The notes below the pieces were generated by a model, which saw only the letters and a program-made list of their open reading frames with translations, was not told the origin of the DNA and did no database searches. Positions 63,505-64,000 of a stretch of DNA of 64,000 nt are shown here, one piece after another. Source of the stretch: Pseudodesulfovibrio sediminis (GTDB lineage: Bacteria; Desulfobacterota; Desulfovibrionia; Desulfovibrionales; Desulfovibrionaceae); assembly GCF_020886695.1 (NCBI RefSeq), contig NZ_AP024485.1, positions 1,063,001 to 1,127,000 of the forward strand, in the 5' to 3' direction. Every line of letters starts with the position of its first letter. Positions within the stretch are counted from its first letter, which is position 1. The translations under genes were made by a program, and so were the position numbers.

Positions 63505-63822
63505 ATGCACCAGCCAATAAAACCGCTTGACGAAACGTTTCTGGCGGATATCTGCAAGGCCTTATCCCATCCCGCACGCATCCGCATCCTCAAGCACCTC
63601 CTGGCTGAGGAAGGATGTATCTGTGGCCGCATCGTGGAGATCATGCCTCTGGCGCAGTCCACAGTCAGCCAGCATCTGAAGATCCTCAAGGAGACCGGAC
63701 TGGTGCGTGGAGAAGTGGATGGACCGAAGACATGCTATTGCGTTGACCGGAAAAAACTCGCAAAATTCAACGGCCTCATGGAAAACCTGCTGGCCGATAC
63801 CGATGCACAGGAAGTCGCATGA
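63505..63822 (+). CDS. arsR: ArsR-family transcriptional regulator
   Basis: 105 residues from ATG 63505 (GGAG 10 bases upstream). Winged helix ICKALSHPARIRILKHLLAEEGCICGRIVEIMPLAQSTVSQHLKILKETGLVRG. ArsR-type Cys positions: CICG in the helix region (a C-X-C pair) plus TCYCVDRK. These could bind arsenite, another thiophilic metal or a cofactor. The palindrome overlapping the -10 suggests autoregulation. It overlaps the next gene by ATGA, so the two are translationally coupled. ArsR regulators have been noted beside hgcA-type genes in deltaproteobacteria. Confidence 0.9.
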   Translation: MHQPIKPLDETFLADICKALSHPARIRILKHLLAEEGCICGRIVEIMPLAQSTVSQHLKILKETGLVRGEVDGPKTCYCVDRKKLAKFNGLMENLLADTDAQEVA

Positions 63823-64000
63823 ACGATTTTAAAACCCTCAAGGAACTCAATCTCGAACCACTGGAGATAATGGCTCCGGCCTTTCCTCCAGACCCGGCGG
63901 AAGACGACGCACCCTGTTGAGGACCTAAACCTGACCCCCGTGCCGGGGTCCACGAAAAACCCGGATATTCCATGGAGCCGTATGTCGACGGATTCGTTGA
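63819..64000 (+). CDS. 5' part of probable selenoprotein, HgcA-like, with in-frame UGA (Sec34); runs off right edge
   Basis: ATG 63819 overlaps the arsR stop (ATGA). The frame codes 33 residues ending ...DDAPC, then UGA at 63918-63920, then stays open to the window end: GPKPDPRAGVHEKPGYSMEPYVDGFV. The tail resembles the N-terminus of HgcA-like corrinoid proteins, where I recall a Cys-Cys-Gly-Pro followed by EKPGY and PFV-x-x-F motifs; here the second Cys is UGA. A hairpin at bacterial SECIS distance follows. If UGA is read as stop, this would be a 33-residue peptide and a separate gene from ATG 63972 with no ribosome binding site, which is less likely. HgcA identity rests on about 25 residues and context. 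Confidence 0.6.
63918..63951 (+). promoter_or_regulatory. candidate bacterial SECIS element after UGA
   Basis: After UGA (63918-63920), GACCCC (63933-63938) pairs perfectly with GGGGTC (63945-63950) around the loop CGTGCC (63939-63944). The loop starts 18 bases after the UGA and contains G and U, matching the spacing and loop requirements of SelB-recognised bSECIS elements. No bulged U is visible. Confidence 0.55.

What the first reader, a model, noticed from the sequence alone, without database searches (positions are those of the whole stretch)
63819..64000. Probable selenocysteine codon in an ArsR-coupled HgcA-like gene
The short frame after arsR ends at UGA 63918-63920, but the same frame continues open to the window end and reads sensible protein: ...DDAPC-U-GPKPDPRAG...EKPGYSMEPYVDGFV. 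A stem GACCCC/GGGGTC with loop CGTGCC starts at the spacing of a bacterial SECIS (18 bases from UGA to loop). The start overlaps arsR by ATGA. The motif after the UGA resembles the N-terminal Cys-Cys-Gly-Pro segment of HgcA-like corrinoid proteins. If true, an ArsR-controlled corrinoid protein related to mercury methylation carries Sec in a Cys-Sec pair near its N-terminus, which I have not seen described. Automated annotation would truncate or miss the gene.
Basis: partly seen in the sequence, partly recalled or inferred. Interest (0 to 1): 0.88.

Follow-up and report, generated by a model that had tools for sequence, protein, structure and literature searches.

The report
Selenocysteine-tailed mercury methylation protein HgcA
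The stop-like codon at the window's end is most likely read as selenocysteine near the start of a genuine mercury-methylation gene (hgcA); this kind of selenoprotein has been predicted in print before, but the tail that carries it seems to be missing from the form of the protein that laboratories study.

Summary
Confirmed. Beyond the window the frame stays open to a 393-residue protein (in-frame UGA at residue 34) that passes the NCBIfam HgcA cut-off (431.7 bits, cut-off 275), keeps the NVWCAAGK cap helix and is followed by hgcB.

UGA is selenocysteine on comparative evidence: 21 of 22 Pseudodesulfovibrio-group genomes with an hgcA match (window's own included) have TGA there; the 22nd gene is decayed. 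In 155 aligned HgcA rows the site is Sec 80, Cys 69, other or gap 6. The downstream hairpin shows compensatory changes and is much rarer in Cys homologues. selA, selB, selD and tRNA-Sec are present.

The claim that this is undescribed fails: Sec-HgcA ("CU", NF040863) is tabulated in a 2026 review (PMC13188914) citing Haft & Gwadz 2023.

Added here, by inference: in 9 of 20 of these genes the first start codon after the UGA makes the cap cysteine residue 93, the published numbering for P. mercurii ND132, and the reported 37 kDa fits such a product (36.2 kDa) better than the full one (42.2). Recombinant "full-length" HgcA thus probably lacks the Cys-Sec tail. The tail's role as a mercury ligand is inference.

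The parts
63505..63822 (+). arsR/smtB-family regulator gene directly upstream of hgcA (CxC and TCYC cysteine motifs)
   Evidence: NF033788 HTH_metalloreg 73.5 bits, cut-off 55; HTH_20/HTH_5. An ArsR of this type was detected just upstream in 16 of 20 hgcA genes of the genus (by a motif search).
63809..63812 (+). AGGA, Shine-Dalgarno-like, six bases before the hgcA ATG
   Evidence: sequence
63819..64000 (+). 5' part of hgcA, mercury methylation corrinoid protein (393 codons; runs on to genome position 1128000 with its stop)
   Evidence: translation through TGA; NF040863 431.7 bits, cut-off 275, matched over residues 67-392
63918..63920 (+). UGA read as selenocysteine, residue 34, in a Cys-Sec-Gly-Pro motif
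   Evidence: TGA in 21 of 22 genomes of the genus with an hgcA match, own included; Sec 80 / Cys 69 of 155 aligned rows
63933..63950 (+). SECIS hairpin: stem 63933-63938 / 63945-63950, loop CGTGCC 63939-63944, 18 nt after the UGA
   Evidence: covariation; stem of 6 bp or more in 63 of 79 Sec genes against 7 of 66 Cys genes
63972..63974 (+). first start codon after the UGA (ATG, residue 52), from which a gene caller that stops at UGA could begin hgcA
   Evidence: the ORF listing gives 1972-3000 in L002 (= window 63972 onward) as the ORF

Best explanation
The feature is the 5' end of a real hgcA (in an arsR-hgcA-hgcB gene order). Its in-frame UGA is decoded as selenocysteine by SelB, directed by a hairpin 18 nt downstream (well supported by sequence, not shown by experiment). 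The product is HgcA with an N-terminal tail of about 60 residues, probably flexible, carrying a vicinal Cys33-Sec34 pair ahead of the corrinoid-binding domain (cap Cys148) and the membrane domain. Most likely mechanism of the tail (inferred, about 45%): the selenolate-thiolate pair binds Hg(II), or the CH3Hg+ product, and exchanges it with the Cys94/95 tail and Cys73 of HgcB next to the cobalamin. A second inference (about 75%): published work on purified P. mercurii HgcA ('Cys93', 37 kDa) used a gene model starting about 22 codons after the Sec codon, so that protein did not contain this tail.
For: Frame open beyond the window. HgcA and HgcB pass curated cut-offs. 21 of 22 matched genomes of the genus (own included) have TGA at the site, none has Cys. 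155-row alignment: Sec (TGA) 80, Cys 69; of 145 rows kept, Cys rows use TGC 44 / TGT 22. Hairpin covariation. Hairpin more stable than synonymous recodings in Sec genes (mean z -0.66, Wilcoxon p 6e-7, n 79) but not in Cys genes (z +0.11, p 0.82, n 66). Stems of 6 bp or more in 63/79 Sec against 7/66 Cys genes; G in the first two loop bases in 74/79. tRNA-Sec 78.7 bits, gathering score 47; selA 606 bits; selB 390 bits, and over cut-off in 34 of 36 genomes of the genus; selD itself has TGA in KAAG-U-AAK. The stretch between UGA and the place of the usual GTG start is conserved as protein: 77% identity to the window gene over 19 rows, mismatches mostly at codon position 3. Truncation: Sec to cap Cys is 113-115 residues in all 79 rows; the first start codon after UGA gives cap Cys number 93 in 9 of 20 genes of the genus and 20 of 79 overall; 338 aa / 36.2 kDa from there against 393 aa / 42.2 kDa; literature passages give Cys93 and 37 kDa.
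Against: No experiment shows Sec in this protein. The window gene's own hairpin is not exceptional by itself. The recombinant, presumably tail-less ND132 HgcAB does methylate cobalamin and Hg (PMC11588087 passages), so the tail is not strictly required. Three of 152 rows have Ser or Tyr at the site as aligned. Hairpin and Sec/Cys counts are over related sequences, not independent events: the tree needs only 6 changes of the Sec state at this site, and the Sec set is richer in G+C. The hairpin also constrains the bases that one search counts. The metal-ligand role has no direct evidence.
Confidence: 0.9

Rival explanations
1. UGA is a true stop: the 33-codon frame is a short leader peptide, and HgcA is translated from a start codon downstream of the UGA (ATG at residue 52 here, GTG at the place of residue 56 in many relatives).
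For: An ATG, GTG or TTG exists between UGA and cap in all 79 Sec rows. Recombinant protein of that size is active (PMC11588087 passages). The NF040863 match begins at residue 67.
Against: The downstream start is not conserved: with the first start codon the cap Cys would be residue 10 to 112 depending on the gene, and 46 of 79 rows have no ATG between UGA and cap. The tail and the exact UGA position align with a continuous CC-G-P reading frame in Cys homologues. A hairpin tied to UGA-bearing genes is unexplained. No clear Shine-Dalgarno before ATG 52.
Confidence: 0.05
2. The TGA is a sequencing error or a nonsense mutation in a dying gene.
For: One genome of the genus (G022) does have a decayed hgcA.
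Against: The same TGA is in 21 of 22 matched genomes of the genus and 80 of 155 rows. The rest of the window's gene and its operon partner are intact.
Confidence: 0.01
3. Sec insertion is real, but the Cys-Sec pair is a redox element (selenenylsulfide/selenolate) that keeps the corrinoid or HgcB reduced, or handles arsenic or an unknown native substrate, rather than a mercury ligand.
For: Vicinal Cys-Sec pairs are redox centres in other selenoproteins (general knowledge). An ArsR-type regulator precedes the gene in 16 of 20 genes of the genus. Why microbes methylate Hg is not known (PMC7305189 passage).
Against: Nothing decisive. HgcB already has two [4Fe-4S] clusters for reduction. One Sec row and some Cys rows have no preceding Cys (G-U in L124; Ser, Ala, Gly or Thr before Cys in 15 of 69 Cys rows), so a vicinal redox pair is not always possible.
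Confidence: 0.4

Closest known systems
Sec-containing HgcA (NCBIfam NF040863, motif CU, WP_250697417.1; refs 61 and 63 of PMC13188914; ref 63 is Haft & Gwadz 2023, J Bacteriol 205:e0025922)
   Same: HgcA with one Sec in a Cys-Sec pair; as far as can be seen, the same thing.
   Different: Seen only as a table row; the 2023 paper is not held. I cannot say which genera it covered, or whether it noted the truncation of the ND132 gene model.
HgcA of Pseudodesulfovibrio mercurii ND132 (UniProt F0JBF0 according to PMC7305189)
   Same: Same genus name and family, cap-helix Cys; an arsR neighbour is recalled, not checked.
   Different: Published numbering (Cys93) and size (37 kDa) fit a product that starts after the Sec codon.
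Cys-form HgcA (CCGP/CCGS tail)
   Same: Same tail motif, Cys aligned with the Sec.
   Different: No UGA at the site; hairpin weak or absent in most.
Sec-containing HgcB (NF040864, GVGU; ref 63 of PMC13188914)
   Same: Partner protein with Sec, in the same operon type; 18 rows found here.
   Different: The window's own HgcB has Cys there (GVGC). No row examined had both Sec sites.

Membership tests
HgcA (NF040863) | score over the curated equivalog cut-off | tested here: met
   431.7 bits against 275
HgcA (NF040863) | cap-helix N(V/I)WCAAGK motif with the Co-ligand Cys | tested here: met
   NVWCAAGK, Cys148
HgcA (NF040863) | hgcB ferredoxin directly downstream, two CxxCxxCxxxCP motifs, conserved Cys73, C-terminal CC | tested here: met
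   P0003, NF040864 125.3 bits against 99; GVGC and terminal CC
HgcA (NF040863) | C-terminal domain of five transmembrane helices | not tested
   the NF040863 match covers this part (to residue 392); no topology or structure prediction was obtained (folding machine busy)
HgcA (NF040863) | mercury methylation activity | not testable with these tools
   needs the organism
bacterial selenoprotein | in-frame UGA with coding sequence on both sides | tested here: met
bacterial selenoprotein | Cys in homologues at the UGA position | tested here: met
   Cys 69, Sec 80, gap 3, Ser 2, Tyr 1 of 155; 8 of the 69 Cys rows have a Cys-Sec pair elsewhere in the tail
bacterial selenoprotein | SECIS hairpin just downstream with G early in the loop | tested here: met
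   own loop CGTGCC at 18 nt; covariation; 74 of 79 have G in the first two loop bases. bSECISearch itself was not run.
bacterial selenoprotein | selA, selB, selC (tRNA-Sec), selD in the genome | tested here: met
bacterial selenoprotein | Se found in the protein | not testable with these tools
   needs 75Se labelling or mass spectrometry

The most novel reading that the evidence does not exclude
The HgcA on which the purified-enzyme biochemistry of mercury methylation rests is a truncated gene product. Native HgcA in Pseudodesulfovibrio, including the model methylator ND132, is a selenoprotein whose mobile Cys-Sec tail takes part in moving Hg(II) or CH3Hg+ between HgcB and the cobalamin; a Sec in HgcB at position 73 can serve the same relay instead, so a complex carries one Sec or the other.
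Probability: 0.35. Interest if true: 0.8.

Novelty: new member of a known kind. Interest (0 to 1): 0.5.

Why it matters
hgcAB makes the neurotoxin methylmercury, and mercury binds selenium very tightly, so selenocysteine in the methylating protein itself would link the two elements directly. If the gene model of the model strain omits the Sec tail, then the purified-enzyme work had no chance to test it, annotation that stops at UGA truncates the gene in a genus where every readable copy seen here (21 of 21) encodes Sec, and selenium supply could influence methylmercury formation. Re-searching existing proteomes with the longer sequence would test this quickly.

Tried and rejected
Internal start after a true UGA stop: rejected mainly because the downstream start is not conserved and the tail is conserved as protein. 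Pseudogene or sequencing error: rejected. Single-sequence folding as proof of a SECIS: not significant; replaced by covariation and a Sec-against-Cys comparison.

Mutual exclusion of Sec in HgcA and HgcB: HgcB was found by a motif in 132 of 155 rows; none had both (68 Sec-tail/HgcB-Cys, 46 no-Sec/HgcB-Cys, 18 no-Sec/HgcB-Sec; Fisher p 5e-7). One search shows that one of the 46 (L155) also has a Sec tail, so 69 / 45 / 18. Of the 23 misses I inspected 22: 16 show an HgcB with Cys, 6 show none. But the Sec-HgcB rows form one branch, and the independent-pairs test gave 7 usable pairs with almost none differing in HgcB, so this is not supported as a rule. The 132 include duplicate records.

Corrections made on checking: the 145 rows leave out four of 149: L134 and L135 (copies of L082 and L084), and L088 with L131, two copies of one Cys gene dropped together by a flaw in my duplicate filter, so one Cys gene is missing from the hairpin comparison and from the tree. 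The tree counts 8 rows with a Sec elsewhere in the tail; there are 9 (L155 was missed). My notebook says 10 of 20 for Cys93; the checked figure is 9 of 20.

A plasmid search of the last 3 kb found nothing. AlphaFold modelling of the tail was not obtained. Its alignment A2 held 56 of the 80 named loci, and the rows left out include the three with Ser or Tyr at the site, so the invariance that one search reports there is partly by selection and is not used. The phylum search was not turned into counts because the position of the TGA in each hit was not checked.

Full report
What is there. The window is G000:C1:1063001-1127000 of a 3,764,150-base single-contig genome. The next bases were taken from the same genome (L002). 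The frame that begins at ATG 63819, overlapping the arsR stop by ATGA, has one in-frame TGA at 63918-63920 and then runs on to a TGA stop at L002 2998-3000, giving 393 residues. It is followed 22 bases later by a 95-residue dicluster ferredoxin. Two loci of the same genus-level group are recorded under the name Pseudodesulfovibrio (contigs of 5,289 and 9,829 bases, the lengths of G029:C215 and G024:C193), so the genus is Pseudodesulfovibrio or its GTDB equivalent.

Which protein. Residues 67-392 match NF040863 (mercury methylation corrinoid protein HgcA) at 431.7 bits, cut-off 275. The ferredoxin matches NF040864 (HgcB) at 125.3 bits, cut-off 99. The upstream gene matches the ArsR/SmtB metalloregulator family at 73.5 bits, cut-off 55. 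The cap-helix motif NVWCAAGK is present, its Cys at residue 148. The only solved structures matched by sequence are CFeSP gamma/large subunits, over residues 95-215 (3 distinct sequences at E up to 0.001). This is HgcA, not merely a relative. The match to the NCBI model starts after the Sec segment, so annotation by that model would not notice the tail.

Is the UGA selenocysteine? First, conservation. Of 36 held genomes of the genus (the window's own included), 22 match HgcA. In 20 the gene is whole and has TGA at the homologous codon. In G026 it is split over two contigs and the N-terminal piece has the TGA. In G022 the gene is decayed. None has Cys there. Second, Cys homologues. At the site: Sec 80, Cys 69, Ser 2, Tyr 1, gap 3. 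The residue before it is Cys in 79 of 80 Sec rows, and Gly-Pro follows in 79 of 80. Eight of the 69 Cys rows carry a Cys-Sec pair elsewhere in the tail. In the 145 rows kept for the next tests, the 66 Cys rows use TGC 44 and TGT 22.

Third, the hairpin. In 21 sequences of the genus the six-pair stem is kept in 99.2% of cells, with compensatory changes in two pairs (A-U to U-A or C-G; C-G to U-A in two sequences). The covariation score is 0.138, against at most 0.072 for slid versions and 0 of 500 shuffles; the number of doubly changed pairs is reached in 12 of 500. Over 79 Sec and 66 Cys genes, RNA from base 7 to 45 after the codon folds better than synonymous recodings only in Sec genes (mean z -0.66 against +0.11; Mann-Whitney p 1.3e-5). 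A stem of at least 6 bp at SECIS spacing occurs in 63 of 79 Sec genes and 7 of 66 Cys genes (the Sec set is also richer in G+C, 0.71 against 0.64). These rows are related, so the p-values overstate independence. For the window gene alone the hairpin is unremarkable.

Fourth, machinery. tRNA-Sec scores 78.7 bits (gathering score 47), selA 606 bits, selB 390 bits in the own genome and over cut-off in 34 of 36 genomes of the genus (the other two are 82% complete assemblies). selD is itself a TGA-bearing gene, in the context KAAG-U-AAK. hgcA also uses TGA as its final stop, so decoding must be local, as a SECIS would make it.

Does translation start after the UGA instead? With the first start codon after the UGA the cap Cys would be residue 10 to 112 depending on the gene, and 46 of 79 Sec rows have no ATG there at all. 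The 21 codons between UGA and the usual GTG are 77% identical as protein to the window gene over 19 genes of the genus, against 71% for the following 92 codons, with mismatches of 0.15, 0.13 and 0.46 at codon positions 1, 2 and 3. That looks like a translated region, though the hairpin lies within it and constrains bases too.

The numbering clue. Sec lies 113-115 residues before the cap Cys in all 79 rows. Published work on P. mercurii (formerly D. desulfuricans) ND132 calls the cap residue Cys93 (passages of PMC7305189, and of PMC11588087). In 9 of 20 genes of the genus (20 of all 79) the first start codon after the UGA is a GTG that makes the cap Cys exactly 93; in the window gene it is an ATG giving 97. 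From the residue equivalent to that GTG (V56) the window protein has 338 residues and 36.2 kDa; the full one has 393 and 42.2 kDa. [quoted passage not shown] I conclude that the ND132 gene model very probably begins after a Sec codon and that the recombinant 'full-length' HgcA lacks the Cys-Sec tail. ND132's own DNA was not in the collections I could read, so this is inference. That such enzyme still methylates cobalamin and Hg shows the tail is not strictly required in vitro.

How it may work. Shown by sequence: UGA plus hairpin plus machinery, and a Cys-Sec or Cys-Cys pair ahead of the corrinoid domain in most of the HgcA rows sampled. Inferred: a mobile tail with a soft selenolate-thiolate pair is suited to bind Hg(II) or CH3Hg+ and exchange it with HgcB's Cys94/95 and Cys73, which PMC7305189 proposes as carriers. 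A redox role or another native substrate remains nearly as likely. Two patterns point to a relay but do not prove it: Sec in the HgcA tail and Sec in HgcB coincide in 0 of 132 rows (corrected), and the only three rows aligned with neither Cys nor Sec at the HgcA site (gaps apart) are Sec-HgcB rows (L079, L102, L118). Both rest on one clade.

Evolution. On a quick tree of 149 rows the Sec state at this site needs 6 changes (at least 4 on starred branches); 64 Sec rows, including all 20 genes of the genus in the tree, form one all-Sec group (SH-aLRT 91, not starred). Nine further rows have a Cys-Sec pair at another place in the tail, such as CUPPK.

What is known. Sec-HgcA with motif CU and Sec-HgcB with motif GVGU are tabulated in PMC13188914 (passages seen), citing Haft & Gwadz 2023 (reference seen; paper not held). 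So the kind is known as a prediction. Library searches for HgcA with selenocysteine, mercury methylation with selenoprotein, HgcA with HgcB, ND132 and N-terminal, two of HgcA, start codon and selenocysteine (20 of 279 listed) and hgcA with selenoprotein showed, in the listings, no title or abstract opening that ties the ND132 numbering to a truncated gene; of the papers found I read only passages (PMC13188914, PMC11588087, PMC7305189, PMC7573106). The point may nevertheless be in the 2023 paper.

Noticed in passing
L153, L155, L159, L161, L163, L164, L157, L083, L107: HgcA relatives whose in-frame TGA sits at a different place in the tail (CUPPK, CUPPR or CUEA), most with further Cys-Cys pairs downstream: a second, apparently separate Sec placement in HgcA.
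   Followed up: partly
L079, L085, L090, L094, L099-L104, L108-L111, L113, L115, L117, L118: Eighteen operons with Sec in HgcB (GVGU); they form one branch of the tree and none has Sec in the HgcA tail; some have reduced the HgcA pair to one Cys or none.
   Followed up: partly
L097 (hgcB downstream of hgcA): HgcB with TGA at a cysteine position of the first [4Fe-4S] motif (CSGUGEC). A Sec cluster ligand would be unusual; a sequence error in this metagenome-assembled genome is possible.
   Followed up: no
L124 and L158: Two genomes of one genus (g13): G-U and G-C at the site, without the preceding Cys in either, suggesting that the second residue of the pair is the more important one.
   Followed up: no
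L077, L080, L087, L105, L120, L173: Cys-form HgcA tails with several Cys-Cys (often CCPP-like) repeats, resembling a metal-binding tail.
   Followed up: no
L032 and L034 (G022): A genome of the genus with a decayed hgcA; 14 of 36 genomes of the genus have no HgcA match at all, so the operon is patchy within the genus.
   Followed up: no
L179:1028-1999 (-), genome 2591527-2592456: selD of this genome is itself Sec-encoding (KAAG-U-AAK), a natural positive control for UGA decoding.
   Followed up: yes
window 63505-63822 and L011-L031: The ArsR before hgcA has a CxC motif in its DNA-binding half and a TCYC motif further on, kept in most of the 16 genes of the genus in which it was found.
   Followed up: partly
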